NCBI RefSeq assembly: GCF_030540835.1
Contig: NZ_JAUOEK010000082.1
Location: 1-60,357, forward strand
Length of the DNA: 60,357 bases
DNA from: Flavivirga aquimarina
GTDB lineage: Bacteria > Bacteroidota > Bacteroidia > Flavobacteriales > Flavobacteriaceae
Direction: 5' to 3'
Below are positions 144 through 43,513 of this stretch, one piece after another. The notes beneath the pieces were generated by a model. That model saw only the letters and a program-made list of their open reading frames with translations. It did not search any database and was not told where the DNA came from. Made by a program: the position numbers and the translations under genes. Each line of letters opens with the position of its first letter. Positions within the stretch are counted from its first letter, which is position 1.

Positions 144-2354
144 TCAATTAATACTATTTTTTAAAATAAAATCTACAATGGGTTTTGGGTTCTTTAATGA
201 ATGTGGATGATGACCAACTTTAGGTTTGTGAATAATGGTAATATCCCATCCTAATTCTATAAGTCTTTTTTGTAATAAAGCTGTGTTTTCTATAACAGGA
301 ACAACTTTATCTGCATCGCCTACAACACTTAAAATAGGAACTTTATTACTTGCTAAATATTCTAAATGGTTTATTGGGTTTCCGTTATATAATAGCGCTT
401 CTTTTTCCGAAAAACCATATTGTTCTAAACAGTTTTCCCAAGCAGAAGGAGAACCTTTTCCAATACCTTTTCCTGCCGGCCAACTTTTAAAATCGCAAAC
501 AGGAGCATCAACATATATACAAGCTATTTTATTAGCATTACGATTTGCCCAATTTAAAACAATAAGTCCGCCACGACTCATGCCCTCTAAAACAACTTTA
601 GGGTTTAATTTATATTTTGTTGTCATGGCATCGTAAAAATCATCCCAGATTTGGACAGCTTTTTCGTTTCCAAATAAACCACCAACATCAATATAAGCTA
701 AATGAAACCCTTTTTCTAAAAGGGCTAAATCGGTTTGTGGTTCATGACCCCAAAATCGAGCACGCCATATCCAGTTTCTATTTTTATTGGCTATTTTAGG
801 GAAAACAATTTTAAATTTAACACCATTAAGTGTGGAGTCTACTATTTTATACCCATGCCATTCTTTTATATTATTAGAGGGCTTTATTGTTTTATTGTAA
901 AAACTTAAGGCACCTATATTGTTTTCTACACCTTTAATCCATGGCCCATTATATACATTTTTAGTATTTGTATAGAATTTATTAGGCAAATATGTAATTT
1001 TATCAAAAGCGCTCTTTCCTTTAATTTTTAGTATGAGTTTACTATCATCAATCGTTATACTTTCAACAATATTCGATACTTGTTCCGTATTATTTTTTTT
1101 AGAGAAAAAGAATTGGTTTTTAAGATAGTGTAGCTTTCTTTTAACTTCTTTTTTCTCACTATAAGTTATAGGTTGGTCAAACTTTAATACCACGTTATCA
1201 TCATGATAGTATACATTTTGTAGTTTTGGCGGTGTAATAATCGTCTCTGCTTTTTTATTATAAAAATCACGAGATATTAAAGGGAAAATACGATCTGCAA
1301 ACTCTAAATAGCCCTCATAAGAAAAATGGCACCCATCATGACCAATAACACTGTTAGTAGACATAATATCTATCATGTCATACTTCTCAGCAATTTCATA
1401 TTGTTTTTCTCTTAATTGAGAAGCGTAATCACCACCACAGCCCGGGTGTAATTGAAACAAATAAACTTTTTCTAAACCTAAATATACTTTTTTCCAATCT
1501 GCTAAAAGCGTATCAAAATTTGATTCGTAAGCTTCATAAGATTCTAAAATATTGGTGTTTGTTTCTCCTTGATGCCATAAAATGGCTTTAATATTATTTT
1601 TTAATCCAGCTTCATTTACGCGATAAGCTAATCTGCCAAAGCTAGTTTCTAATGAAGGTTGCTCTGGGTACAACATGTTTTGTTCTATTGAAGAAGAACC
1701 GCTACCGCCATTAATAATACAAACAGGAACTTGATGTTTTTCTACAATAAGGCGCATTAATTCCATGCCCCAAATACCAACACCATGTGGATTTTTTTTA
1801 AACCAACCACCAACACCTTCTAAATTAGGGCAGTTCCCTGTGGCTAAACCCCAGCGTACTTGTTTATCATTGTCATTATAAGTTTTAAAACCAGTTTTAA
1901 CACCAAAGCTTCTGCAATAGGGACTACTATATGTTGATAAGCTACTGCTTGCATGTGAATTAGACTGGCCAGAAATAATATAGGCATCTCCACAAACAAT
2001 ATTATTAGCTGTTAAATACAAACTGTCTATATTGTTTTTTTTGATATAAAATTCAAATTTAAACTGGTGTAAACCTGCATCAATTTTAGTAGAAAGAGAA
2101 AACTTCTTGTTTTTTAAAGTGTCTTTTTGTGTATCATATAAGACACCATTCTTAAATACTTTTAATGAGTATTCTTTAAAAGCAGGGATACCTTTAACAA
2201 CTCCAGAAACATAAACTTTAGCACTGTCTAATTTATTTCGCGCATATAAGCGATAATCTTCAGGAACGTCTGTAAATTTTAATTCTTGTGCAGTAGAATT
2301 TACTGTTAGAGTTATAAAAAATATAAAAAAAAGGGAGCCTTTAAAAGAGTTCAT
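144..2354 (-). CDS. Two-domain esterase: SGNH (sialate O-acetylesterase-like) plus alpha/beta hydrolase
   Basis: 736 residues with an N-terminal signal peptide (about 1-22), so exported. Residues about 115-360 look like an SGNH/SASA-type carbohydrate esterase. There is a GQSNS block (Ser131), a block around GGSGSSS (216-222), HQGE at 261-264, and a DGCH motif (Asp340, His343) that would complete the triad. After a linker, residues about 500-736 resemble an alpha/beta hydrolase with nucleophile elbow GMSRGG (Ser593), an acid near GDAD (Asp680 or Asp682) and a late His near 715/716. The protein thus seems to carry two independent serine-esterase sites, most simply for removing acetyl or other acyl groups from a glycan. 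It is divergent from the sulfatase at 2517 across 162 bp, which may hold both promoters. The SGNH call is firm. The second domain's activity and the substrate are inferred. Confidence 0.85.
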   Translation of the reverse strand: MNSFKGSLFFIFFITLTVNSTAQELKFTDVPEDYRLYARNKLDSAKVYVSGVVKGIPAFKEYSLKVFKNGVLYDTQKDTLKNKKFSLSTKIDAGLHQFKFEFYIKKNNIDSLYLTANNIVCGDAYIISGQSNSHASSSLSTYSSPYCRSFGVKTGFKTYNDNDKQVRWGLATGNCPNLEGVGGWFKKNPHGVGIWGMELMRLIVEKHQVPVCIINGGSGSSSIEQNMLYPEQPSLETSFGRLAYRVNEAGLKNNIKAILWHQGETNTNILESYEAYESNFDTLLADWKKVYLGLEKVYLFQLHPGCGGDYASQLREKQYEIAEKYDMIDIMSTNSVIGHDGCHFSYEGYLEFADRIFPLISRDFYNKKAETIITPPKLQNVYYHDDNVVLKFDQPITYSEKKEVKRKLHYLKNQFFFSKKNNTEQVSNIVESITIDDSKLILKIKGKSAFDKITYLPNKFYTNTKNVYNGPWIKGVENNIGALSFYNKTIKPSNNIKEWHGYKIVDSTLNGVKFKIVFPKIANKNRNWIWRARFWGHEPQTDLALLEKGFHLAYIDVGGLFGNEKAVQIWDDFYDAMTTKYKLNPKVVLEGMSRGGLIVLNWANRNANKIACIYVDAPVCDFKSWPAGKGIGKGSPSAWENCLEQYGFSEKEALLYNGNPINHLEYLASNKVPILSVVGDADKVVPVIENTALLQKRLIELGWDITIIHKPKVGHHPHSLKNPKPIVDFILKNSIN

Positions 2355-24889: not shown

Positions 24890-25613
24890 TAAAATGAAAA
24901 ATAATTAAAAAAAAGATCACTCATTTTTATTTTTTTGTTCTTAATAGAATAATCTACGATCAAATTTAAGGGATAAATTATAAAAGAATATTAGAAAGTT
25001 ATTATACTGTTGCAAGTACTGACTTTAAAAAAAATGTATATTCTCAAGAAAATATGACTGCTCAAAATATGTAAATACAATACTTGAACATTTTTAGTTA
25101 TAGAATATTTTTTACCACTAGGAATTCAACTTAACTTATTTGAATCTTGAAGTAGAATACTAAAAAGCCTTATGAGAAGGAAGGAGTCGAAAAGAGCATA
25201 AAACAATCTTGTCTGGTTATAGAAAAGAGAAAAAGAATAGAAAATTAATAATACTGAAATTAACTTTGGCTTATAGAAAAAGGTAGCAATTTAAAATTGC
25301 TACCTTTTATTTTGCTAATTCTAACGATAGTATGTGTATTATATAATAACTTAATCTTCTCACGAACAATAATATTTTTTTAATAAACCGTAAACTTATA
25401 AAACAAATTAAAAGAGGGGAGAACAACACAAGGTGAAATTCAAGAAAATGGTGATAAAACTATTGAATGGCCTCAAACAAACTCTTTATTTTACTAGTTT
25501 TGAAATGTTTGGTTTGTATATGTAATATTTGAAATAAATGTAGTTATTTTACATAAAAAATAGGGTTTTTACAGATACGTTTAAATTAACGAAATATAAA
25601 TTTGATTTTAAAA
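24890..25613. other. Long gap with possible decayed coding DNA
   Basis: No intact gene is seen in 724 bp. There are short open stretches with normal-looking codons, such as about 25166-25247 (plus) and the final stretch to 25497 reading EIQENGDKTIEWPQTNSLFY before a stop, which could be remnants of lost genes. A strong hairpin lies at 25278-25308. The promoter of the GH141-like gene should be near the right end. A TAnnTTTG element is at 25495-25502 but without a convincing -33 partner. Confidence 0.4.
25278..25308. terminator. Perfect inverted repeat, likely terminator
   Basis: Arms 25278-25292 (AAAAGGTAGCAATTT) and 25294-25308 are perfectly complementary. The GC-containing core is flanked by A-runs and T-runs on both sides, so it could stop transcription in either direction. 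It lies about 390 bp after the last GH29 gene. Confidence 0.7.
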
Positions 25614-27974
25614 ATGAAAAAAGTGTTATGTATGAGTTTTTTATTTTTGTTAACTATCATTTTTCATGGTTGCAAAAATAAAACAATAGATATTTATGTT
25701 AGCCCATTAGGCAATAATACCAATGATGGAACAAAAGAAAAGCCTCTAAAAACATTAAAAAGTGCCTTAGATAATGCCCTGTCAATTATAAGAAATGAAA
25801 GCGATTATATTAAAATACATCTTCTAGAAGGTGATTATCATTTATCATCTACTTTGGTTATTACATCTCAATTAAATAATATAAATATTGTTGGAGAAGG
25901 AGTAGACAAAGTTACAATCAAAGGTTCAAAAATTATTGACACGAAATGGGAGTCTTTTAATGAAAATATTTTGGTCACTAATATTGATTCTACATTAGAT
26001 TTTAATCAACTATTTATTAATGGCGAAGAGCAAATTTTAGCAAGGTACCCGAATTATGATGAGAATGGACGCTATTGGCAAGGCTACGCAGAAGATGCTA
26101 TAGATAAAGAGCGCATTTCTAATTGGAAAAAACCAAAAGGCGGTTTTGTACATGCTATGCATCGAGGCCGTTGGGGAGGTTTTCATTATGAAATTGTTTC
26201 TGTAGCAGAAGATGGTGAGTTAGAATTAAAAGGGGGGCATCAAAATAATCGTCCATCACCAATGCATGCCAAATATAGAATGGTAGAGAATGTATTTGAA
26301 GAATTAGATAGTGATAAAGAATGGTATTTAGATAAAACAAATCATAAACTGTATGTTTGGAAAAATAGTGATACAGATTTAGCAAATGCCAAAATTGAAG
26401 TAAGTGTTTTAAAACACCTTATAGAAATAAAAGGAAACACAGAAAACCCTGTGAAAAATGTAAATATCTCGGGTGTTAATTTTCAACATGCTTCACGTAC
26501 TTTTATGGAACAATATCATCAACTTTTGCGTAGTGATTGGACCATTTATAGAGGAGGCGCTTTATTACTAGATGGTACAGAAAATGTTTCCATTAATGAT
26601 TGCGAATTTACAAATCTTGGTGGTAACGTTATTTTTGCAAATGGTTATAATAGAAACATAGAAATTACTGGTAACCATATATATAATTGTGGTGCATCTG
26701 CAATCTCTTTTGTTGGTGACTCAACAGCAGTGCGCTCACCATCGTATCAATACAGAGAGTTTGTTCCTATGAAAGATATGGACACCATTACAGGGCCTAA
26801 AAATGAGTTATACCCTTCTAACTGTAAAGTGGAAGACAATTTAATATATAAGATTGGACGTATTGAAAAGCAAGTTGCTGGAGTACAGATTTCCATGGCT
26901 ATGAAAATTCATGTAAAAAACAATAGTATTTATGATGTACCTCGCTCTGGAATTAATGTTAGTGAAGGTACGTGGGGCGGTCATATTATTGAATATAACG
27001 ATGTGTTTAATACCGTTTTAGAAACAAGCGACCACGGTTCATTTAATTCTTGGGGGCGTGATCGTTTTTGGCATCCAGAGTATAATGTGATGGATAGTTT
27101 GGTAAAGCAAAACCCAAAAATGCCAATGTGGGATGCTATGCATACTACCATTATTAGAAATAATCGATTTCGTTGTGACCATGGATGGGATATCGATTTA
27201 GATGATGGGTCTACCAATTATGAAATTTATAATAACCTTTGTTTAAACAGAGGGATAAAGTTAAGAGAGGGGTATCACCGTGTTGTTAAGAATAATATTA
27301 TGGTAAATAACTCCTTTCATCCGCATGTTTGGTTTTCAAATAGTGAAGATGTTTTTACAAATAATATTGTCATGAAAAAGTATGCCGATATACGTCTTAA
27401 AGGATGGGGGAAAGAAGTGGATTATAATTTATTTCCAACCGAAACAGCCTTGAAAAAAGCACAGAGTAATAGTACGGATGCAAATAGTTTATACGGCAAT
27501 CCATTATTTATAAACCCTAAGAAAGGAGATTTTACAGTAAAAGAAAATTCACCAGCCTTAAAAATTGGTTTTAAAAACTTCCCTATGGATCGTTTTGGTG
27601 TTCAAAAACCAGAACTTAAAGCTATTGCTAAACAACCAGAAATTCCAAACTTACAAATTGAATCTTCAGAGAAAGAGGGGACAAAAACTAAAAATTGGTT
27701 AGGAGCAACTCTTAAAGAGATTGAAACCATTGAGGAACAATCTTCTTTCGGAACGCATAGTATGGATGGTGTTATCATTTTAAAAATAGATAAGAACAGT
27801 AAGTTGTCGAAATCATCTATTAAAGAAGGTGATGTCATTATTGGTGTTGAGCAAGAAAAAGTCAAAAACATATCTAATTTTATAGACACTTATAAAAAAT
27901 ATGATTTCAGTGAAAACACGACATTTAATATAGTAAGAAATCAGAAAGAAATGGAAATAGAGTTTAAAAAATAA
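25614..27974 (+). CDS. GH141-like right-handed beta-helix protein with C-terminal PDZ domain, lipoprotein
   Basis: 786 residues from the ATG at 25614, giving a clean lipoprotein signal (Cys20, ..FHGC|KNK). A TTG 12 bases upstream is a poorer start. Residues about 25-110 start a parallel beta-helix (IDIYVSPLGNNTNDGTKEKPLKTL), followed by an inserted beta region (LFINGEEQILARYPNYDE) typical of GH141-type proteins. Helix coils (INDCEFTNLGGNVI, IEITGNHIYNCGASAI, VKNNSIYDVPRSGINV) run to about 660. Residues about 690-786 form a PDZ-like domain (GVIILKIDKNSKL..IKEGDVIIGVEQEKV). GH141 includes alpha-L-fucosidases and xylanases. Alpha-fucose linkages fit here. The PDZ tail is unusual and may bind another PUL protein. 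Confidence 0.83.
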   Translation: MKKVLCMSFLFLLTIIFHGCKNKTIDIYVSPLGNNTNDGTKEKPLKTLKSALDNALSIIRNESDYIKIHLLEGDYHLSSTLVITSQLNNINIVGEGVDKVTIKGSKIIDTKWESFNENILVTNIDSTLDFNQLFINGEEQILARYPNYDENGRYWQGYAEDAIDKERISNWKKPKGGFVHAMHRGRWGGFHYEIVSVAEDGELELKGGHQNNRPSPMHAKYRMVENVFEELDSDKEWYLDKTNHKLYVWKNSDTDLANAKIEVSVLKHLIEIKGNTENPVKNVNISGVNFQHASRTFMEQYHQLLRSDWTIYRGGALLLDGTENVSINDCEFTNLGGNVIFANGYNRNIEITGNHIYNCGASAISFVGDSTAVRSPSYQYREFVPMKDMDTITGPKNELYPSNCKVEDNLIYKIGRIEKQVAGVQISMAMKIHVKNNSIYDVPRSGINVSEGTWGGHIIEYNDVFNTVLETSDHGSFNSWGRDRFWHPEYNVMDSLVKQNPKMPMWDAMHTTIIRNNRFRCDHGWDIDLDDGSTNYEIYNNLCLNRGIKLREGYHRVVKNNIMVNNSFHPHVWFSNSEDVFTNNIVMKKYADIRLKGWGKEVDYNLFPTETALKKAQSNSTDANSLYGNPLFINPKKGDFTVKENSPALKIGFKNFPMDRFGVQKPELKAIAKQPEIPNLQIESSEKEGTKTKNWLGATLKEIETIEEQSSFGTHSMDGVIILKIDKNSKLSKSSIKEGDVIIGVEQEKVKNISNFIDTYKKYDFSENTTFNIVRNQKEMEIEFKK

Positions 27975-31877: not shown

Positions 31878-34022
31878 TTATTTTTTTACAAAACGAAAAG
31901 ACTGCTTTTTATTGTTTTCAAAAAGAACTTTAATAATAAAGGTTCCGTTTTTTAAATTAGATATATCATATTCATTTTTGTTTTCAGAAAATGACATGAT
32001 TTTTTGACCTAAAGTATTAAAGATTGTTGCAGATTTTATTTTTTGAGATAAGCTAAATGTATTATCTATAGGGTTAGGGTATAGATCGATAGGATTATTA
32101 AAATTGATATCATTATTTATAGATAGGGTAGTAGGGTCTATCGTTTTATCTACCCAATTAAAAACAGTTTCTTTAGTCTCTAGATTAACCGAAACATCTA
32201 GGTTTTCAAAAGAACGTTCATATAGATATCCATTTTTGATAGGGTCGCCTAGAGGAGCCCCTAAGTAATAATGAAACTCGTCTATAAAACTAGTATTCCA
32301 TAAATCGGAACTAGAGCTTAAAGCATTTACTCCTGTTGTATAACTAAAATAAGCATTCTCTTCTGCAATTATTAAAAAGATTGCTAACGGAAAATAGACA
32401 TGTTCTTTGGTATAGGCTAATAATTCATCATCATCTGTTGGCTTTTCTTCTTCAGTAGCAGAGCCCGGACTTGTTTGAAAATTTATCATTTTTCCTTTTT
32501 GTAATGCTTCTCTCATTAACTGAATAGAAACAGCAATTGCATCTGCATTGGTTTGACCAGCACTAGGGAAATCCCAACGTTCCATATACGAACCATCCAT
32601 TATGTCCATTAAACCTCTAGAAGCTCCAGCACGTTCATTTCTTAAAGTATTCCCAACTAATAGCTTATTTGGAGGTAACTGATTATATAAATCACTTAAC
32701 ATTCTAGTGTAGTTATTTGATGGAGTAGTACCATCTCCTAAAAAAACATCACCATTAACATCTGGGTTTACTACCTTGTCTACAAAAACACCATCAATAA
32801 CATCTAAATTGGCCATTTCTAAACAAGTATCAATCCACCAGTCTCTCATACCTTCTACATCTTGATTATACCAATAATATAAATCTTTAAAAAGGTAAAT
32901 TTCTCCGTTTTCGTATGTGCTCCAAGCAGCTGCATTTTGATCGTATTCTATATTAGCTCTGTAACCACCATAGTTTATATAAGTATTGTAATAAAAAAGC
33001 GTAGTTAAGTTTGGGTTTAGAGCTTTAATTCTAGTTGCTGCGTTTTCTATTCCATCTTCGATATAAGTGAATCCTTGAGCGTTCGCTTTTTCTAACATGA
33101 TTAATTGAAAATTGTCTGCAATATCTTTTATTTGTTGATCTGAAAAAGCTTGTGCGTTCCTTGCAGCTACCCATCTAGGTATTTTATTCCAAGAAAAACT
33201 AGGAAATGTTGTTTTATTTTCTGTTTGCGCAGGGTAATCATGATATAGAGTAGGTCCTTTTTCAAAAGTTGAGTAATCGGTTACATCCCACACCGTATTA
33301 TTTGGTCCATTTATTTTAATATTAAATGTTAATGATGTAATTGCAAATTCACGTGTAACAGTAGTAGGACTACCTGCTCCTGTTACAGAAAACGAATTAT
33401 TTATACCTGATGGAGAAAAACTCTTATTGCTATCCATTTCAAAAGACTCTAAATTGTTACCAAGACCAAAAATCATGGTATGGTCACGCCCTCCATTAGT
33501 CTCAATTAAATCAACAAGCGTAAAATCAGACTCATGAGTGAAATCAGAACTCAGTCCATTAACCATAAAGTTTTTAATTTCATAAACTAATGATTCACCA
33601 GGGTCAACATCAAAATCTCCAAAAACGCCCCAAGTATTATTAATTATTGTTACATCAGATTGTGTTCCATAATTTGAAACAGAAGAAGCATTTTCATCTG
33701 CACTATAGTTATACATTGCTCCAGTATAACCTTTTACACTTAAGTCAAACGAAACGAGATCATTATTACCATCTTTATTAAAATCACTTCCATTAAAAGT
33801 AATTGAATATATTAAATCGTTATTATTTCTAGTTTGAGAGCAATTGATATTCCCAGATGAATAATTTTGAATTATAGATCCATTATTAATAATGATGTCT
33901 TCATTAACTTGAGCTGTATCTCCTGCATTGGGATTTAATACAATCCATAAATTTGAAGTTTGAGCATATAAGCATTGATATGCTGTAAAGAGTAAACTAA
34001 TTAAAAACAATTTTTGTTTCAT
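31878..34022 (-). CDS. T9SS-secreted putative TIM-barrel glycoside hydrolase, paralogue 3 of 3
   Basis: 714 residues with a signal peptide (about 1-21). Residues about 24-255 form an unrecognised beta-rich domain (LWIVLNPNAGDTAQVNEDI..). Residues about 272-635 match the family at 9870 and 19845: PSFSWNKIP (274-282), ALNPNLTTLFYYN, Asp415 in DGVFVDK, Glu481 in GSYMERWDF, and a final RSFENLDVSVNLETKETVFNW. The last roughly 70 residues (LYPNPIDNTFSLS..GQKIMSF..FVKK) are a type A T9SS sorting domain, so this copy is exported to the surface or medium, unlike the other two. That makes it the best candidate of the three for an endo-acting enzyme on the intact polymer (inference). Last gene of a three-gene operon; the upstream gene stops 4 bp before its ATG. 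Confidence 0.78.
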   Translation of the reverse strand: MKQKLFLISLLFTAYQCLYAQTSNLWIVLNPNAGDTAQVNEDIIINNGSIIQNYSSGNINCSQTRNNNDLIYSITFNGSDFNKDGNNDLVSFDLSVKGYTGAMYNYSADENASSVSNYGTQSDVTIINNTWGVFGDFDVDPGESLVYEIKNFMVNGLSSDFTHESDFTLVDLIETNGGRDHTMIFGLGNNLESFEMDSNKSFSPSGINNSFSVTGAGSPTTVTREFAITSLTFNIKINGPNNTVWDVTDYSTFEKGPTLYHDYPAQTENKTTFPSFSWNKIPRWVAARNAQAFSDQQIKDIADNFQLIMLEKANAQGFTYIEDGIENAATRIKALNPNLTTLFYYNTYINYGGYRANIEYDQNAAAWSTYENGEIYLFKDLYYWYNQDVEGMRDWWIDTCLEMANLDVIDGVFVDKVVNPDVNGDVFLGDGTTPSNNYTRMLSDLYNQLPPNKLLVGNTLRNERAGASRGLMDIMDGSYMERWDFPSAGQTNADAIAVSIQLMREALQKGKMINFQTSPGSATEEEKPTDDDELLAYTKEHVYFPLAIFLIIAEENAYFSYTTGVNALSSSSDLWNTSFIDEFHYYLGAPLGDPIKNGYLYERSFENLDVSVNLETKETVFNWVDKTIDPTTLSINNDINFNNPIDLYPNPIDNTFSLSQKIKSATIFNTLGQKIMSFSENKNEYDISNLKNGTFIIKVLFENNKKQSFRFVKK

Positions 34023-34026
34023 GTTT

Positions 34027-36597
34027 TTATTTTTTAATTAACTTGTTGATAATTAGTTTTTCAGGAGTACTTATTTTTACAAAATAAATTCCTGAGTTTA
34101 AGTCACTAACAGAATAACTACTTTGTGGTTTGTTAAAGTGCTTTACTTGTTGTCCTGAAATATTATAAATTCTAACACCTTGAATATTAATTGTGTTTAA
34201 CTGAAATGATGTTTTTACAGGATTGGGATATATGAAAGGTGTTATTTCTTGATTTGAATCTACTTTAGTTTTAGTCTTTAAAGCAGAAGAGCTTGAAGAT
34301 TCAAAAACTTGAACTTCTGCAAGTGATAAAGAAGCTCCTGTATTACTCCTTACTCTTATTATATTTCCTGCAGCACCATTTGCATTTACAGTAATTGATG
34401 GATCTGGGTAACTATTAACCACCTTAGCAAAATTTCTGGTAGACTCATCATAAACTAATACTGTAAAGTTTGATAATCTTGTTAAACAACAACTATCAGT
34501 TCTTCCAAAAATATTAATATCTCCTATGTTATATGTATCATCTAATGTTACTTGCCAGTAGGCGTTTGTTTCTGAGGCTGTATGTGTAACTGATCCGTCA
34601 GAATAGGCTCCATTTGTGTTATCATCAATAGCTCCTGATGCCACTCCATCATGCAATGTTGAAGATTGTCTTGCAGTACCATTTAAGGCAAGGTTTTTAG
34701 GGGCAATTTCTTCACATAATTCACATTTAACGTCAGATTTTAACTCGTCAAAATAATATACCAAATCTTCGTCTAATGTTAGCCCATCTTCATCTATAGG
34801 GTTTGTATAGTCTTTAGCAAACATAATATACATTCGGTCATAATCACTTAAGTTATCATCTGTAAACGTAAAACTTAATTCTTCCCATGTATTTGTTTGT
34901 GTAAAATAGGCTGTTTTACTTATTTGATTTACAGTATCTGTATTGTCTCCTGCTGCATTTTTAAGGAATAGAGTAACGCTTCTACTTTTTTCATCTAATA
35001 TATTTATTTCATCTATTGTTTCTGGTTTAAACAAAGCGTTTAAAACGAAAGTCACACTGGAGTTTTCTATAGTACCATCTGTAAAATTGTAATCAATTTG
35101 AGCAAATTTATAGTCTCCTGCAGTTTTGATAAATTTATTAGCGATATTTGAAGTAGATCCGTTCGCAGTAATTTCAGCATCTAACGAAAGATCATGATTT
35201 TCAGTATATACCCCTCCAACATCTCTATATTTATTTATACCTATAAATGCAGGTAATTCTGTATAATCTAACCAAGAATAATCTGTTTCAATTATTGGCG
35301 TTTCCGTTTCGTCAATATTACCATTATATTTCATTGCAGAGCTATACATAAGACCATCAGTCGTATTTACATTTATATAATATACTTGAGCAGCTTCTGG
35401 AAGACTTGCAACAATATTTCCAGAATTAACACCTTCTGTAATTGTTGCATTTATTGTTTTCCATTCAAATTCTTCATCAAATTTGCCCCATTCTCTAACG
35501 TCTGTACAATAATAAAGTATAGCACTAGTTAAAGCGCCTTCATAATTGTAGTTATAATTTAATTCCAGATTTTCATCAATAGTCTCTGATGTAAATTCTA
35601 CAGGTTTCAATATTGATGAATCAAATCCAGTAATATAGTTTGCAAAATCATAAATCTCTTCAGGAGTCCATCCAGCTGCATGTCCATGTGGCATAACATC
35701 TTCTATTCGTAAATATTTATCTGGACTAGCAGATGCTTCAAAGGTTTCTGTGAAAACATTTAAGGTAAATTGTAAATCTTTATTTCCATTTACAAATAGC
35801 ATAGGTGCAGTATGTAAGGGTGCATATAATGAAGGTTCCCAATTTTCTAGATAAAAATTCTGTGCAGTTGAAGTCATTCTAGATAGTTGGTTAGAATAAA
35901 TAGGGGAATCAAATAAATACCCACAACCGTAAACAGGTATTATAAAGTCCAGACGCTCGTCAATACCTGCTAATACAGTGTTATTAATACCTCCCCATGA
36001 AATTCCTGTGACACCAATATGATTTGTATCCACATGAGAGGTAAAGTTTGTATCTCTCAATAAACTATTGGCTAACATTGCATTTGCTATTGCATGGTAG
36101 AACCATTGATCTCCTAATGCTTCATCATTGTCTGAGAAAAAATATTCTTGAGAAGGGCCTCCATATGTCCATGTTTCAGAATCATCGGGAACCGTTCCTC
36201 TTAAAGATAGCGCTATGGCAATATATCCTTTATTTATCCACTTGTCAACCCAAGCTGTGTAGGCTCTACCACCGCCTCCGTGTATTAAAATTACTGCCGG
36301 AACTTTTTCGCCTTCAACTAAACCTTCTGGTTCTCCATACCAACAAAAAACCTTAGTTTTATTTTCTGTATTTAATGCTTTAGAATACGGTAACCCGTCA
36401 AAAAACATACCTTTAATAGTTCCAGCTGCAGTAGATGTATTATACGAATCATATGCAGTTGTAAATTCAAAGTTTGGAGCATTGTAGACTCCACTTGCTG
36501 TTAAACTATTTTTTATAAATTCTGGACCACTTGTTTGTGAATTTATAGGTGTACAGAATAGAACGATTGCAATAAATTGAATAATATTTTTTATCAT
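34027..36597 (-). CDS. T9SS-secreted alpha/beta hydrolase (acetyl esterase-like) with F-type lectin domain
   Basis: 856 residues with a signal peptide (about 1-20). Alpha/beta hydrolase (about 35-325): oxyanion motif LIHGGGG (104-110), nucleophile elbow GISWGG with Ser200, acid Asp274 (NGNKD), His304 or His306 (MPHGHAAGW). It resembles acetylxylan-esterase/dipeptidyl-hydrolase folds. A beta-rich module spans about 440-625. The F-type lectin domain (about 635-765) has His672, Arg699, Asp701 and the Cys703-Cys704 pair of the fucose-binding motif. A T9SS type A sorting domain occupies about 785-856. Predicted to bind fucose-rich glycan outside the cell and remove acyl groups, for example acetyl. 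Middle gene of the operon, 39 bp after the gene at 36637. Esterase activity is inferred from the fold. Confidence 0.85.
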   Translation of the reverse strand: MIKNIIQFIAIVLFCTPINSQTSGPEFIKNSLTASGVYNAPNFEFTTAYDSYNTSTAAGTIKGMFFDGLPYSKALNTENKTKVFCWYGEPEGLVEGEKVPAVILIHGGGGRAYTAWVDKWINKGYIAIALSLRGTVPDDSETWTYGGPSQEYFFSDNDEALGDQWFYHAIANAMLANSLLRDTNFTSHVDTNHIGVTGISWGGINNTVLAGIDERLDFIIPVYGCGYLFDSPIYSNQLSRMTSTAQNFYLENWEPSLYAPLHTAPMLFVNGNKDLQFTLNVFTETFEASASPDKYLRIEDVMPHGHAAGWTPEEIYDFANYITGFDSSILKPVEFTSETIDENLELNYNYNYEGALTSAILYYCTDVREWGKFDEEFEWKTINATITEGVNSGNIVASLPEAAQVYYINVNTTDGLMYSSAMKYNGNIDETETPIIETDYSWLDYTELPAFIGINKYRDVGGVYTENHDLSLDAEITANGSTSNIANKFIKTAGDYKFAQIDYNFTDGTIENSSVTFVLNALFKPETIDEINILDEKSRSVTLFLKNAAGDNTDTVNQISKTAYFTQTNTWEELSFTFTDDNLSDYDRMYIMFAKDYTNPIDEDGLTLDEDLVYYFDELKSDVKCELCEEIAPKNLALNGTARQSSTLHDGVASGAIDDNTNGAYSDGSVTHTASETNAYWQVTLDDTYNIGDINIFGRTDSCCLTRLSNFTVLVYDESTRNFAKVVNSYPDPSITVNANGAAGNIIRVRSNTGASLSLAEVQVFESSSSSALKTKTKVDSNQEITPFIYPNPVKTSFQLNTINIQGVRIYNISGQQVKHFNKPQSSYSVSDLNSGIYFVKISTPEKLIINKLIKK
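34285..34695 (-). repeat. F-type lectin module, copy A (near-identical to 36910-37320)
   Basis: About 410 bp encoding the fucolectin domain and the following ESSSSSA linker. It is nearly identical at the DNA level to copy B in the neighbouring gene, including long exact runs and most synonymous positions, while the flanking parts of the two genes are unrelated. This indicates recent duplication or ongoing gene conversion. Confidence 0.9.
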
Positions 36598-36636: not shown

Positions 36637-38877
36637 TTATAATTTAATTAATTTTTTGATAGTCGATTTTCCTACCTCGTCTATTTTTACGTAATAAAAA
36701 CCCGATATTAAATCTTGAATAGAATACTGGTTTTGAGGCTTGTTATAACTTTTTACTATTTTTCCTGAAATATTGTATATAGTAATGTTTTTAATGTTTT
36801 TTGTACCTATAGAGAAAGCGTTTTTTGTTGGGTTTGGGAATAGCAAAATAGGGCTCTCCTCAATTGAAACTGTGTCTTCTTCTGTATCCTTTGTAAATGC
36901 AACTTTAGCAGAAGAGCTTGAAGATTCAAAAACTTGAACTTCTGCAAGGGATAAAGAAGCTCCAGTATTACTTCTTATTCTTATTATATTTCCTGTAGCA
37001 CCATTTGCATTTACAGTAACTGATGGATCTGGATAGCTATTAACCACCTTAGCAAAATTTCTGGTAGACTCATCATAAACTAAGACTGTAAAGTTTGATA
37101 ATCTTGTTAAACAACAACTATCAGTTCTTCCAAAAATATTAATATCTCCTATGTTATACGTATCATCTAATGTTACTTGCCAGTAGGCATTTGTTTCTGA
37201 GGCTGTATGTGTAACTGATCCGCCAGAATACGCTCCATTTGTGTTATCATCAATAGCTCTTGGTGCCACTCCATCATGCAATGTTGAAGATTGTCTTGCT
37301 GTACCATTTAAGGCTAAATTTTGATTGCTTTGTACCCATATTTGATTTGTGTAATTGCTAGTAAGAACAACTTTGGTGTTGTCTAAAATTAAATTATCAA
37401 GTAATAGATATGAATCGTCTGCAGACATATCTTTGTTGTAAGCATACCCCAAAAGACGCACATATTCAATATCGCTTTCATAAGGTTTATAGGTAAATCT
37501 GTTTTGATATGTTGCATATTCGCTGTCTGCTGTTGTATATGGATTTACTAATGCTTCAGTAGTTACATTGTAGTATAAATCTGGAGAAATGTATTCTTCA
37601 CCAGTAGTAGTGTCTTTCATTAAAAATATTGGAAGCATATCTTCTGTAAAAGAGGTAAACAAAGAGATATCTTGAGATAATCCCTGATTTGAATCTGCCA
37701 CCGTAACAGATACTGTAGGTGTTGTTTCAGGAACGGGTTCAATAAAACCATAATCGCTATAAGGAGCCAATAAGTTTGCTTTAGTTTGAACAAAATCCCT
37801 TGTGCCATTGATATAATATGTCCTATAGTAAAATGTTTCTCCACGTTCTATATTTATTTGAGAAATAATTGTAAACAATGTATAATCACGAGGGTTAGGG
37901 TCTCCTCCAACTTGGGCAAGTCTCATAAAAACATTTCTTAATCCATGAGAACTCAGTTCTGTAGTTTTAATGTTATTACCAAAAACCATTCCCATAGATG
38001 GAGCCGTATTGCTTATAGTGTCTTGAGACCATATTACATATCCGCCAGTTTCATCAATATCTCTTGTATCTGTACCTTGAGTTGTTCCTGTTTGACCATT
38101 TGATATTTCAATACTGCCATCTGGTAATCCTACGAATTTACCACGTAAGCTTGAAGCACGAACACCTCCCCATGGCGCATTGATATGGCTGAGTGTTTCG
38201 TCTCCAAAATTTTGAATAATATATGTTACTTCCAAAACACCTTCTCCTATTTCTTTGTATTTGGTTGTATATAAAGTTTCAGATTTATATAATGAAGGAA
38301 TATGGGCTTGAGTCCCCCAATTACTAACATAATATGCTTTTTCTGTATCGTTATAATATGATGCCATTAATGGGCTATACCAGCTTTCTTGAATTCCATC
38401 ATTATTATAAGCACCTGCTCCATGAATAAAATAAAATGCTGAAGTGAAATCTCTATTGTTTAGGCTGCCGCTTACAGCAACTGGTTGCCAAACTTCATCT
38501 ACCCATGTTGATATTTCTTTTGATTGAGGTGGTATGCCTTCTCCATAGGCACTTTTAAAAGAATAAATTTGACCTCCTTGGCCTATACGTAATTCCCAAG
38601 AATTCTCGGTTGTAGCAGCATCATGTTGAAGTTTTGCGAGGTATACATGCTGTTCATCTGCAGCTGTAGGGTCTAGCCAATAACTTCCTGAAGCCGAATA
38701 TTGGGTAGTGAAACTTGTTGTACCACTTTGTTGTAAGAGGTTTCCATAATCTACTGTTGGGATAAATTCAAAAAAGGATTCATCTACAGCTGTTGAAGGG
38801 TCAATGTTTATTGGATTTTGGGCAATAACCGATAAACTAAGGATAAGCAATATTGCAGTTAGTTTAACGTTTTTCAT
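36637..38877 (-). CDS. T9SS-secreted protein: unrecognised catalytic-type domain plus F-type lectin
   Basis: 746 residues with a signal peptide (about 1-19). Residues about 30-370 form a beta-rich domain I do not recognise. Conserved-looking blocks are WELRIGQGGQIYSFKSAYGEGIPPQ (start about 94), WVDEVWQPVAV, FYFIHGAGAY, SWYSPLMASYY, YYVSNWGTQAHIPS, and INAPWGGVR. Its size, clustered Trp/His/Asp/Glu residues and pattern (a sugar-mutarotase-like super-sandwich is possible) suggest an enzyme, perhaps a new fucanase or lyase. A linker sandwich (about 385-515) follows, then the F-type lectin (520-651: His557, Arg584, Asp586, Cys588-Cys589, Arg592) and a T9SS sorting domain (about 678-746). First gene of the operon, with 505 bp upstream to HTCS2. 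The N-terminal function is unknown. Confidence 0.75.
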   Translation of the reverse strand: MKNVKLTAILLILSLSVIAQNPINIDPSTAVDESFFEFIPTVDYGNLLQQSGTTSFTTQYSASGSYWLDPTAADEQHVYLAKLQHDAATTENSWELRIGQGGQIYSFKSAYGEGIPPQSKEISTWVDEVWQPVAVSGSLNNRDFTSAFYFIHGAGAYNNDGIQESWYSPLMASYYNDTEKAYYVSNWGTQAHIPSLYKSETLYTTKYKEIGEGVLEVTYIIQNFGDETLSHINAPWGGVRASSLRGKFVGLPDGSIEISNGQTGTTQGTDTRDIDETGGYVIWSQDTISNTAPSMGMVFGNNIKTTELSSHGLRNVFMRLAQVGGDPNPRDYTLFTIISQINIERGETFYYRTYYINGTRDFVQTKANLLAPYSDYGFIEPVPETTPTVSVTVADSNQGLSQDISLFTSFTEDMLPIFLMKDTTTGEEYISPDLYYNVTTEALVNPYTTADSEYATYQNRFTYKPYESDIEYVRLLGYAYNKDMSADDSYLLLDNLILDNTKVVLTSNYTNQIWVQSNQNLALNGTARQSSTLHDGVAPRAIDDNTNGAYSGGSVTHTASETNAYWQVTLDDTYNIGDINIFGRTDSCCLTRLSNFTVLVYDESTRNFAKVVNSYPDPSVTVNANGATGNIIRIRSNTGASLSLAEVQVFESSSSSAKVAFTKDTEEDTVSIEESPILLFPNPTKNAFSIGTKNIKNITIYNISGKIVKSYNKPQNQYSIQDLISGFYYVKIDEVGKSTIKKLIKL
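36910..37320 (-). repeat. F-type lectin module, copy B
   Basis: Partner of 34285-34695. Codes for the same fucose-binding fold with a handful of substitutions (SG for AP at 538-540 and D to G at 552, for example). In both copies His to Arg spacing is 26 residues, as in F-type lectins, but five rather than four residues separate the motif Asp from the second Arg. Confidence 0.9.
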
Positions 38878-39382: not shown

Positions 39383-42300
39383 TTATTGTTTCTTTAAAAA
39401 CTCTGATGGTGAAACTCCATGTAACTTTTTAAATGAGGTAGAAAAATAAGAGTTAGATTCGATACCTATTTGATACATAACCTCACTAACATTAGTGCCG
39501 TCATTTTTACTCAATAATTCTGCTGCCCGTTGGAGCCTGAAATTCCGTAAATATGCATTGGGAATTTGCCCTGTAAGTTGCTTTAATCGTCGGTAAAAAT
39601 GAGAAGCACTTAAATTCATTTTTATAGATAATTCTTCAACACCAAAATTAGAATCTGAAATATTTTGTTCTATAACTTGAATGATATCATTTAAAAATGC
39701 TTTATCTCTAGTAGATAGTTCAATTCCTTTTTTGGGAAGCTTACTGTTTTTGGAAAAATACTCTTTTATTTTTGTATTATTATCGATAAGTTTTTTAATG
39801 CGTAATTCTAAAACTTTTATTGAGAAAGGTTTACTTACGTATTCATCAGCTCCAAATTCTAAGCCTTTAATGATATCATCGTTATCTCCTAATGCTGTTA
39901 ATAGTAATACAGGAATATGGCATGTTTCTGGGTTTGATTTAACTTTTTCGCAAAACGCGAACCCATCCATTTCGGGCATCATAACATCGCTAATTATAAG
40001 GCTAGGTTCCTTTAGTTTTATCTTTTCTAATCCCTCTAATCCGTTATTAGCTAATGTTATGTTATATTTTTTAGAAAGCGTACTAGTTAAAAAGTTTTGA
40101 ACATCTTCTTCATCTTCTACAATCAATAAATGGTGTTCTTTTAGTTCATTATTTGAAATTTTATTTAAAGCTTCATTCTTATATTCGGGAGATAATGGCA
40201 CCCAATCTTTAATAAACGATTTTGTATTTGTGTTTACTTCAATGCTTTTATAGTCTTCAATGTTCCCCGTGGGGATTAAAATAGAAAATCTTGTTTCAAC
40301 AAAAGGTTCACTTTTTACAGAAATGTCTCCTTCAAGTAAATTGATAAGTGATTTGCAAAACGCAAGCCCAATACCACCACCACTAACCGTATCGTCATGG
40401 TTTCCTAATTGATAAAATCTTTCAAAAATGTTATCTAAATCTTTTGCAGGTATACCTTTTCCATTATCAATAACATCTATTTGTATCATTTTGGTTCCAG
40501 AATCCTGAATTATATCAGATTCTATACTAATACTTCCGTTGATAGGTGTATTTTTAAATGCATTAGATAATAAATTAAAGAGAATACGTTCCACTTTTTC
40601 AGTATCAATTATGATGTCTTCATTAGGTGAATTGACTTTGTAAAAAAAGTTTATGTTGTTTTCAGTAGCATAATTTTCAAACGCTTCTGTAGTTGGATAT
40701 ATAAAGCCTCCTAAAGTATTATGGCTAAAATTTAAGTCTACATAACCTTGTTCTGCTTTTCTAAATGTTATTAATTGATCTACTAAGCTAAGTAGTCGTT
40801 TTGTGTTTTTTTGAATGATGGCTAAATATTTTGTGTTTTCGGAATCTTTATTGAGAGAGATTATATGTTCTAATGGTCCAGTTATTAAAGTTAGTGGTGT
40901 TCTAAATTCATGAGAGATATTTGTAAAATATCTAAATTTACCTTGATTGATGGTGTCTAGTCGTTCTTTGTCTAGTTGTTCGTATTTTAAGCGCTGTTTT
41001 AACTTTTCGTGCTGAACAAAATAAATAATAATTCCAGCACAAACTAAAACTGTTAGTAAAACAAAAAGTAAATAACTCCACCAAGTTTGATACCATGGGG
41101 GTAATATGGTAACATTTAAACTCTTTATTTCTGGGCTCCAAACACTATCACCATTAGCAGCTTTTACTTTAAATACGTAATCTCCAGCAGAAAGATTGGT
41201 GTAGGTTATAGTCTTTTTTCCAGTTTGTGCTTCAATCCACATATCATTAAACCCTTCCAATTTATATGCTAATTTGTTTTTGGATGGAGTGGATGTGTGT
41301 TTAACTACTAATTGAAATGCTATGGTTTGTTCATTCTGACTTATAGAAATGTTTTCTGTTTCCGAAATGGATTTTTCAAGAATAACTTTGTTGTTAATCT
41401 TTTCTCCAATTTCCATGACCTTATTGTTCACTAAAAGTGATGTAATTATAATTTTTGGAGGTGTACTATTTAATTGAATATTTTCAGGTCTAAATATGGT
41501 TAAACCATTTAATCCTCCAAAATAAAAATAACCAGAGTTTCCTTTAAAATAAGAAGCTTGTCTAAAATTGTTTTGAGATAAACCATCTCTTACATCAAAA
41601 ACATCAACATTATCATTTTTAATATTGAATTTAACTAAGCCCATATCTGTGCTAATCCATAAGTCAGACTCATTTTCCTGTAAAATGCCGTAAATGGCAT
41701 CATCAGGTAAAATATCATTTTTTCTAAAATATTCAGTTTTAGTAGGTAACCCTTGATTATTTAATGTCATTTTATTTATACCTCCTCCAAAGGTTCCTAT
41801 CCATAAATGATTATTTTCTTTATGAAGAGAAAATATATTATCGTAACTTAACTTTATTGCATCAATGCTATTAGCAGTATATTGTTGCTCTATTATTAGT
41901 TTACTTTGTTTAAATAAAACTTTAAGAAGGCCTTTGTAAGTTCCAAGCCAAAAAGAATTTTCCCCATCTTTGAGTACAACATTTGCAAGATTGTTTTTAA
42001 AATCTAATTTTGATTTTATTTTTAAAATAGGGTTCGTTTTATTTTTTATTTTTTCCCATGGGTTTTCTATAGCGATAATCTGGGCACCGGCAAAGAGTAG
42101 ATTGTTTTTGTTAATTTGAATAATATTACGAAACCCGTTTCTGAGGGGAGCGTTTTTGTTATCTTGAAGTATAACTTTTTTGAATTTATTATTTAATGGA
42201 TTATAAACTATTAATGAATTATCAGAGCTTAGCCATATGTATCCTTTTTGATCTTCAAAGATACAGCGCATAACATCACCTTCGGACCAGGGTAGTTTAG

Positions 42301-43513
42301 ATTGTAAATCTTCAAATTTTAATTTATTAATTGTATTGCTGTTTATGATGCTTTTACTTCTAACTAAAGGAGTGTTATAACCAGATAGCCATAGGTAGCC
42401 TCGTTTGTCTTCTATGATTGATGTTATTAGATTATCTGATATTGAAAAGCTGTCATAAGGGTTGCTTGAATAATTAATAAATGGTTTTTGAGTTAGGTCT
42501 AGTTTATTAATACCGCCTTGGGCAGTACCAATCCATAATACATCAAAATCATCTTGATACAAGGAGTTAATCTGGTGGCTACTTAAGCCTAATTCGTTTT
42601 TTTGATTAAAAGAAAAGTGATCGAATGTATTTTGTTCTTGATTGTATTTATATAACCCATCATCTTTTGTTCCTATCCATACCATTCCTACACGATCTTC
42701 AAAAATAGTATTTACCTTTTCTGGTGCAGATTGTTTTTTTGTGTTATTAAATGATTGTATTATGTGTAGCCTATTCTTGTCTAAAGTCGCTTTATATAAG
42801 CCCTGATAAGTACCAATCCAAAATATATTATTTATAAGTACAACTGTTGTTATAGGAATATCAGTTAATTTATCGAAACTAGATATTGATGGTACGTCGT
42901 CTTTTAAAGATATATTTTTTAAGCCTGTTGAGGTTCCTAAAATCAATGTGTTTTCATCTTTAAAAGCGAATGAATTAATTGTTGGGAATTCTGGGGAACT
43001 TTTCAAAATGTTTTCTGACACCTTAAATGTACCGTTTTCAATATCGGCTAGTTCACAGACAAATAAATGATTTTTCCCAGAGAACCATATACGTCCCAAA
43101 GGTCCAGATTCTATATGGGTTATTGAAACTTTTTTGGATAATGGAACGGTGTAAAATTTTTCTAACCAAGGTATATATATATTAACGCCTAAGTTTGTAC
43201 CAATCCATAATACACCTTGCTCATCTTTGAAAAGTGAAAATATATAATTGCTAGATAAGTTGCCGTTGGTTTTAGATTGTGTCGTATATGTTTTAAATTC
43301 ATAGCCATCATACCTAATCAATCCATTAGGGGTGCCATACCATAGAAAACCATATCGGTCTTGCTCTATTACATTTATGGTATTTTGATTAAAACCTTCT
43401 TTGTTGGAGAATCGTTCAAAGTTTTGAGCTTGAACAAAACTCCAAAAATTTATTATAATACCAAATAATATAATAAAGTCGATTTTTCGGTGCCATTTCA
43501 TAAATGTAAACAA
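39383..43513 (-). CDS. Hybrid two-component system regulator (HTCS2)
   Basis: 1376 residues; start at Met1 or Met5, signal-anchor about 11-29. Domains match HTCS1 throughout: propeller repeats (about 31-685), Y_Y_Y (about 725-803), one transmembrane segment (about 810-833), HisKA His868 (ISHEFRTPL), HATPase (LLSNAFKN 981-988; IDNGKGIP; GGGIGLAF), receiver Asp1176, AraC-type helix-turn-helix (about 1289-1372). The cytoplasmic half is markedly closer to HTCS1 than parts of the propeller are, as expected of duplicated regulators that sense related but different oligosaccharides. It is the regulator nearest the T9SS operon on the same strand and probably activates it. Confidence 0.95.
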   Translation of the reverse strand: MFTFMKWHRKIDFIILFGIIINFWSFVQAQNFERFSNKEGFNQNTINVIEQDRYGFLWYGTPNGLIRYDGYEFKTYTTQSKTNGNLSSNYIFSLFKDEQGVLWIGTNLGVNIYIPWLEKFYTVPLSKKVSITHIESGPLGRIWFSGKNHLFVCELADIENGTFKVSENILKSSPEFPTINSFAFKDENTLILGTSTGLKNISLKDDVPSISSFDKLTDIPITTVVLINNIFWIGTYQGLYKATLDKNRLHIIQSFNNTKKQSAPEKVNTIFEDRVGMVWIGTKDDGLYKYNQEQNTFDHFSFNQKNELGLSSHQINSLYQDDFDVLWIGTAQGGINKLDLTQKPFINYSSNPYDSFSISDNLITSIIEDKRGYLWLSGYNTPLVRSKSIINSNTINKLKFEDLQSKLPWSEGDVMRCIFEDQKGYIWLSSDNSLIVYNPLNNKFKKVILQDNKNAPLRNGFRNIIQINKNNLLFAGAQIIAIENPWEKIKNKTNPILKIKSKLDFKNNLANVVLKDGENSFWLGTYKGLLKVLFKQSKLIIEQQYTANSIDAIKLSYDNIFSLHKENNHLWIGTFGGGINKMTLNNQGLPTKTEYFRKNDILPDDAIYGILQENESDLWISTDMGLVKFNIKNDNVDVFDVRDGLSQNNFRQASYFKGNSGYFYFGGLNGLTIFRPENIQLNSTPPKIIITSLLVNNKVMEIGEKINNKVILEKSISETENISISQNEQTIAFQLVVKHTSTPSKNKLAYKLEGFNDMWIEAQTGKKTITYTNLSAGDYVFKVKAANGDSVWSPEIKSLNVTILPPWYQTWWSYLLFVLLTVLVCAGIIIYFVQHEKLKQRLKYEQLDKERLDTINQGKFRYFTNISHEFRTPLTLITGPLEHIISLNKDSENTKYLAIIQKNTKRLLSLVDQLITFRKAEQGYVDLNFSHNTLGGFIYPTTEAFENYATENNINFFYKVNSPNEDIIIDTEKVERILFNLLSNAFKNTPINGSISIESDIIQDSGTKMIQIDVIDNGKGIPAKDLDNIFERFYQLGNHDDTVSGGGIGLAFCKSLINLLEGDISVKSEPFVETRFSILIPTGNIEDYKSIEVNTNTKSFIKDWVPLSPEYKNEALNKISNNELKEHHLLIVEDEEDVQNFLTSTLSKKYNITLANNGLEGLEKIKLKEPSLIISDVMMPEMDGFAFCEKVKSNPETCHIPVLLLTALGDNDDIIKGLEFGADEYVSKPFSIKVLELRIKKLIDNNTKIKEYFSKNSKLPKKGIELSTRDKAFLNDIIQVIEQNISDSNFGVEELSIKMNLSASHFYRRLKQLTGQIPNAYLRNFRLQRAAELLSKNDGTNVSEVMYQIGIESNSYFSTSFKKLHGVSPSEFLKKQ

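What the first reader, a model, noticed from the sequence alone, without database searches (positions are those of the whole stretch)
36637..38877. Unrecognised catalytic-type domain fused to a fucose-binding lectin and T9SS tail
The N-terminal 340 or so residues match no family I can name, yet they head a secreted operon with an esterase and a glycosidase-like protein, and carry an F-type lectin with the fucose-binding His-Arg-Asp set. A new fucan-degrading enzyme family (hydrolase or lyase) is a good working hypothesis. The architecture is seen directly; the activity is inferred.
Basis: partly seen in the sequence, partly recalled or inferred. Interest (0 to 1): 0.8.

Follow-up and report, generated by a model that had tools for sequence, protein, structure and literature searches.

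The report
GH174 fucan-cutting enzyme with fucose lectin
This gene most likely makes a secreted enzyme that cuts sulfated fucans (sugar polymers of brown seaweeds and sea cucumbers); it belongs to an enzyme family first described in 2023, so it is a good but ordinary member of a known kind.

Summary
The ORF is real: minus strand, 36637-38877, 746 aa. The architecture holds: large N-terminal domain, F-type fucolectin near 518-655, T9SS tail at 679-745.

The N-terminal domain is not unrecognised. Pfam and NCBIfam have no model for it, but residues 22-516 match PDB 8jd7, 'endo-1,3-fucanase GH174A', at E 3.7e-189 and 59% identity, and 9k1g, Fun174Sb of GH174, at E 2e-34. A predicted model superposes on both (target TM 0.92, 0.83). 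The residues listed for Fun174A (D119, E120, E218) align with D127, E128, E216. A tree groups the protein with 8jd7, support 1.0. The window is a fucan-use locus.

Verdict: a GH174 endo-1,3-fucanase fused to a CBM47-like lectin; a new member of a known family. Activity is inferred. A side observation: the adjacent esterase carries a nearly identical lectin (20 of 399 bases differ) that the esterases beside two orthologues lack, which suggests recent copying of the lectin cassette.

The parts
36637..38877 (-). Gene of 746 aa: GH174 catalytic region, F-type (CBM47-like) lectin, T9SS tail
37330..38814 (-). GH174 region, residues 22-516
   Evidence: PDB 8jd7 E 3.7e-189 and 9k1g E 2e-34; fold match, target TM 0.92 and 0.83
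38494..38499 (-). Codons of D127 and E128, aligned with D119 and E120 of Fun174A
38230..38232 (-). Codon of E216, aligned with E218 of Fun174A
36913..37326 (-). F-type fucolectin (CBM47-like), residues 518-655, with H557, R584, D586
36643..36843 (-). T9SS C-terminal sorting domain, residues 679-745
34027..36597 (-). Neighbouring alpha/beta-hydrolase (AXE1 / S15-like 'esterase') with its own F-type lectin and T9SS tail
   Evidence: PF05448 E 2.2e-5, PF02129 E 2.1e-5, PF22633 E 1.6e-11, PF18962 E 1.1e-11
34300..34698 (-). Lectin of the esterase: near-copy of the GH174 gene's lectin (20 of 399 bases differ)
31878..34022 (-). Neighbouring GHL15 protein with T9SS tail, related to a solved 'endo-1.3-fucanase' (9joc)
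   Evidence: PF14885 E 3.2e-27; E 3e-43
39383..43513 (-). Hybrid two-component sensor-regulator 505 bases upstream on the same strand; possible regulator (inferred)

Best explanation
A secreted endo-1,3-alpha-L-fucanase of glycoside hydrolase family 174. The protein is exported through the type IX secretion system. Its F-type (CBM47-like) lectin holds it on fucose residues of a sulfated fucan, and the N-terminal domain hydrolyses alpha-1,3 bonds inside the chain with acidic residues that include D127, E128 and E216. The oligosaccharides would then be taken up by SusC/D-type transporters and trimmed by the fucosidases and sulfatases of the same locus. Shown: family membership, domain order, conservation of the key residues, locus content. 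Inferred: activity, endo mode, the bond cut, lectin binding, and control by the upstream sensor.
For: Residues 22-516 match 8jd7 (E 3.7e-189; 59% identity), titled 'endo-1,3-fucanase GH174A', and 9k1g, titled Fun174Sb from the GH174 family with fucotetraose. Model superposition: target TM 0.92 and 0.83. Key residues aligned. Clade with 8jd7, support 1.0. Lectin and T9SS tail. Three nearest relatives have the same architecture. Fucan locus: three PF01120 fucosidases, one GH95, three GHL15, two sulfatases, three SusC/D pairs.
Against: No activity data for this protein. Members of GH174 differ in specificity: Fun174A cuts between 2-O-sulfated and unsulfated fucose, Fun174Sb/Rm/Ri between two 2-O-sulfated residues, so the exact bond cannot be read from homology. 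E216 is Q in 22 of 80 family rows, so its role may differ in the wider family. The gene is absent from the 11 same-genus genomes searched. The residues D119/E120/E218 were taken from a table in a review, not from the original paper (not held).
Confidence: 0.88

Rival explanations
1. A GH174 enzyme whose substrate or cleavage site differs from those described (another sulfation pattern, or an algal rather than an echinoderm fucan).
For: 59% identity to 8jd7 leaves room; a 10-residue insertion of 8jd7 between the D/E pair and the third acid is lacking here (alignment); several specificities exist within GH174. The locus holds GHL15 and GH95 genes and a GH141-like beta-helix protein.
Against: The window protein groups with 8jd7 to the exclusion of the other rows except its three orthologues, so the same specificity is the default.
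Confidence: 0.25
2. A fucan-binding protein without catalytic activity.
For: It carries a lectin and activity is not shown. A Q replaces E216 in one clade of the wider family (22 of 80 rows).
Against: All three reported residues are kept in this protein and the frame is intact.
Confidence: 0.04
3. A new fucan-degrading family, hydrolase or lyase.
For: No Pfam or NCBIfam model covers residues 1-515.
Against: Strong sequence and fold matches to two solved GH174 enzymes.
Confidence: 0.01

Closest known systems
GH174 endo-1,3-fucanase GH174A, PDB 8jd7 (probably Fun174A of Wenyingzhuangia aestuarii OF219; this equation is inferred from the spacing of the key residues)
   Same: 59% identity over residues 22-516, same fold, same three acidic residues
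   Different: The window protein lacks a 10-residue insertion and carries an F-type lectin after residue 516; Fun174A is described with a different, new beta-sandwich CBM. Whether Fun174A also has an F-type lectin was not seen.
Fun174Sb, PDB 9k1g, GH174
   Same: 30% identity over residues 30-361, same fold (target TM 0.83), the three acids kept
   Different: Distant within the family; reported to cut between two 2-O-sulfated fucose residues
F-type lectins / fucose-binding modules (Streptococcus pneumoniae 2j1r, lectinolysin lectin domain 4gwi, striped bass FBP32 3cqo; CBM47 is the CAZy name, recalled)
   Same: Sequence and fold matches at residues 516-655
   Different: Attached to a GH174 domain and a T9SS tail; binding not tested. 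WfCBM47, which binds sulfated fucan, could not be compared: no sequence at hand.
Orthologues in Tamlana sedimentorum, Flavicella sediminum and Mariniflexile gromovii (L012, L013, L014)
   Same: GH174, F-type lectin and T9SS tail; 68-70% identity over the full length
   Different: Gene order differs: esterase, where present (2 of 3), lies upstream and has no lectin

Membership tests
GH174 | Sequence similarity to a characterised or solved member over the catalytic region | tested here: met
   8jd7 E 3.7e-189, 9k1g E 2e-34; titles name GH174
GH174 | Fold of the solved members | tested here: met
   AlphaFold2 model, target TM 0.92 and 0.83
GH174 | Acidic residues D119, E120, E218 of Fun174A | tested here: met
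   D127, E128, E216 by alignment; assumes that 8jd7 numbering is Fun174A numbering plus 2
GH174 | Endo-hydrolysis of alpha-1,3 bonds in sulfated fucan | not testable with these tools
   needs an enzyme assay
F-type lectin (CBM47) | Sequence and fold match to fucolectins | tested here: met
F-type lectin (CBM47) | Fucose-site His and Arg-x-Asp residues | tested here: met
   H557, R584, D586; the motif is recalled
F-type lectin (CBM47) | Binding to fucose or sulfated fucan | not testable with these tools
   needs a binding assay
T9SS type A cargo | C-terminal sorting domain | tested here: met
   PF18962 and TIGR04183
GH107 and GH168 fucanases | Match to solved members (6m8n, 8bpd; 8ya6, the latter as GH168 from memory) | tested here: not met
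   none of these among the 10 PDB sequences matched at E up to 1 nor among the 50 fold matches listed of 1220
GH187 fucanases | Sequence match to Fun187A | not tested
   no Fun187A sequence or structure at hand
Polysaccharide lyases | Match to a PL profile | tested here: not met
   no such family among Pfam (E up to 0.1) and NCBIfam hits

The most novel reading that the evidence does not exclude
A fucose-binding lectin cassette was recently copied between adjacent secreted genes, from the GH174 fucanase into its partner esterase, so that both enzymes are aimed at the same sugar; and the GH174 domain here has a substrate specificity not yet described in the family.
Probability: 0.2. Interest if true: 0.4.

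Novelty: new member of a known kind. Interest (0 to 1): 0.2.

Why it matters
It adds an uncharacterised GH174 enzyme with a CBM47-like lectin to a family with few characterised members (four are listed in the review passages). Endo-fucanases are wanted as tools for cutting and reading sulfated fucans. The apparent recent copying of a lectin cassette between neighbouring genes is a compact natural example of how surface enzymes gain a shared binding module. It does not open a new enzyme family.

Tried and rejected
A single-sequence AlphaFold2 run gave a useless model (mean pLDDT 30.0) and was not used; the second, from a 51-row alignment, was used. The second-look structural aligner was not available. 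The founding GH174 paper is not held, so what is said of Fun174A comes from passages of PMC11943901 and PMC10778895. The code 8JD7 is in no held paper.

Considered and rejected: new family (GH174 match); lyase; GH107 or GH168 membership; chance (E 3.7e-189). The 80 of 80 conservation of D127 and E128 is not pressed, because one of the two search patterns contained these residues.

Seen of the papers: PMC11943901, passages and section 7; PMC10778895, PMC12786026 and PMC9147238, passages only; all others, search listings only. Open-access papers only; subscription papers on GH174 are not held.

Full report
What is there. The stretch 36637-38877 holds one intact ORF of 746 aa on the minus strand. 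Pfam and NCBIfam find only its C-terminal parts: a galactose-binding-like domain at 540-634 (PF22633 E 1.6e-12) and a T9SS sorting domain at 679-745 (PF18962 E 6.4e-11; TIGR04183 E 3.9e-10). PDB sequences show that the first of these is an F-type fucolectin (4gwi E 3.9e-21, 3cqo FBP32 E 1.2e-20, 2j1r E 5.4e-20, at residues 516-655). H557, R584 and D586 lie in the pattern expected of a fucose site (positions; the motif itself is recalled).

The N-terminal domain is GH174. A sequence search of the PDB gives 8jd7_A, 'endo-1,3-fucanase', at E 3.7e-189 over residues 22-516, and 9k1g_A, 'endo-1.3-fucanase', at E 2e-34 over 30-361 (alignments). Identity is 59% and 30%. An AlphaFold2 model from 51 rows has mean pLDDT 79.3; 38 of the 49 ten-residue blocks from 31 to 520 are above 85, while much of 520-560 and of 654-687 is below 50. 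Among solved structures, rank 1 is 8jd7, titled 'endo-1,3-fucanase GH174A' (E 6e-63, target TM 0.92, rmsd 1.9), and rank 2 is 9k1g, titled Fun174Sb from the GH174 family with fucotetraose (E 1e-29, target TM 0.83); ranks 3-4 and 6-11 are fucose-binding lectin domains. Weak matches further down include a galactose mutarotase (1l7k, E 9.5e-5, target TM 0.38).

Key residues. [quoted passage not shown] another paper says that Fun174A showed no significant activity on brown algal fucoidans (PMC10778895, passages). In 8jd7 the corresponding residues are D121, E122 and E220, the same spacing shifted by two, which suggests that 8jd7 is Fun174A in a construct numbering (inference). In the window protein they are D127, E128 and E216.

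Family context. One scan of genome contigs found 91 confirmed relatives and kept the best 80, 79 distinct loci. Of 80 rows then examined (79 loci plus L011, which appears to be the same gene as L013), D127 and E128 are kept in 80 of 80, partly forced because one of the two search patterns contained them; E216 is E in 58 and Q in 22. In a tree of 82 tips (midpoint root) the window protein, L012, L013, L014 and 8jd7 form a clade with support 1.0; the 22 Q tips lie under a node of 24 tips, support 1.0. An F-type lectin is found in the same ORF in 3 of the 79 distinct loci, the three nearest: Tamlana sedimentorum, Flavicella sediminum, Mariniflexile gromovii (the lectin profile was built partly from these three, so their recovery is no test, and truncated ORFs at contig ends could hide others). 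The gene is rare: 2 of 60 genomes near the window's, its own included, and none of the 11 others of its genus; 1 of 395 drawn from its phylum, its own.

Locus. On the same strand lie, in the order of transcription, a hybrid two-component sensor-regulator (39383-43513), this gene, an alpha/beta-hydrolase with its own F-type lectin and T9SS tail (34027-36597), and a GHL15 protein with T9SS tail (31878-34022), with gaps of 505, 39 and 4 bases. The last is related to a solved 'endo-1.3-fucanase' (9joc, E 3e-43). Elsewhere in the window are three alpha-L-fucosidase genes (PF01120), one GH95, two further GHL15 genes (19845-21044 matches 9joc at E 1.3e-144; 9870-11021 matches 9nhf at E 3.9e-180), a beta-helix protein related to 9rx2 (E 2.6e-27) and to glycoside hydrolase BT_1002 (E 4.2e-10), two sulfatases, and three SusC/D-type pairs. 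This is a fucan or fucoidan utilisation locus. Near the orthologues: a related sensor-regulator in 2 of 3 (L014's contig ends before that place), a related esterase upstream in 2 of 3 (not in the Flavicella stretch), and in Tamlana downstream a T9SS-tailed protein that matches 8bpd (E 1.3e-167) and P5AFcnA 6m8n (E 2.2e-118); P5AFcnA is called GH107 in PMC12786026 (passage).

The lectin copy. The lectins of the GH174 gene and of the adjacent esterase differ at 20 of 399 bases (12 synonymous and 7 replacement codons); blastn gives 95.4% over 416 bases. Ungapped identity per 60 bases is 0.92-1.0 inside, 0.75-0.80 in the two edge windows, and 0.23-0.43 outside. The outside value downstream is too low because of an indel: blastn aligns 150 bases of the T9SS tails at 68.7%. 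By protein the two lectins are 94.7% identical, whereas the GH174 lectin is 63.6, 63.6 and 68.9% identical to those of its three orthologues. The esterases beside the Tamlana and Mariniflexile orthologues have no F-type lectin. The simplest reading is a recent copy of the cassette from the fucanase gene into the esterase gene; gene conversion between two older copies is not excluded. Only two esterases without a lectin were seen, so direction and age are inferred.

Mechanism and confidence. That this is a GH174 member is close to certain (about 0.97). That it is an active endo-1,3-fucanase guided by its lectin is very likely (0.88) but inferred. Which sulfation pattern it needs cannot be told. 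Of the 55 held papers with GH174 or CBM47 in the text, only the review PMC11943901 is shown with both terms (30 listed, papers with more terms first); no statement is made about papers that are not held.

Noticed in passing
window 34300-34698 against the lectin within 36637-38877: Near-identical F-type lectins in two adjacent genes (20 of 399 bases differ) with sharp edges; the esterases beside two orthologues have no lectin. Looks like recent cassette copying.
   Followed up: partly
Family rows such as L034, L037, L051, L053, L057-L062: A clade in which the third key acid (E216 here) is Q: 22 of 80 rows, 22 of 24 tips under one node with support 1.0. Its named members are mostly Flavobacteriales and Saprospiraceae genomes. 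Its activity may differ from GH174 as described.
   Followed up: partly
L012:4062-4898, L013:5223-6047, L014:582-1364: Secreted proteins of 261-279 residues (stop to stop) with only a T9SS tail recognised by Pfam lie upstream of the GH174 gene in all three nearest relatives; function unknown.
   Followed up: no
window 31878-34022: A GHL15 domain with T9SS tail and about 270 unassigned N-terminal residues, only distantly related to solved fucanases (9joc E 3e-43), unlike the two other GHL15 genes of the window.
   Followed up: partly
window 25602-27974: Beta-helix protein related to 9rx2 and glycoside hydrolase BT_1002 with a C-terminal PDZ domain, an unusual addition for a secreted polysaccharide enzyme.
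   Followed up: partly
window 144-2354: A 736-aa protein that joins an SASA-type carbohydrate esterase domain (123-356) and a prolyl-oligopeptidase-like hydrolase domain (584-721).
   Followed up: no
own genome, L004, L005, L006: Further F-type lectin plus T9SS-tail proteins elsewhere in the same genome, 40-52% identical to this lectin.
   Followed up: no
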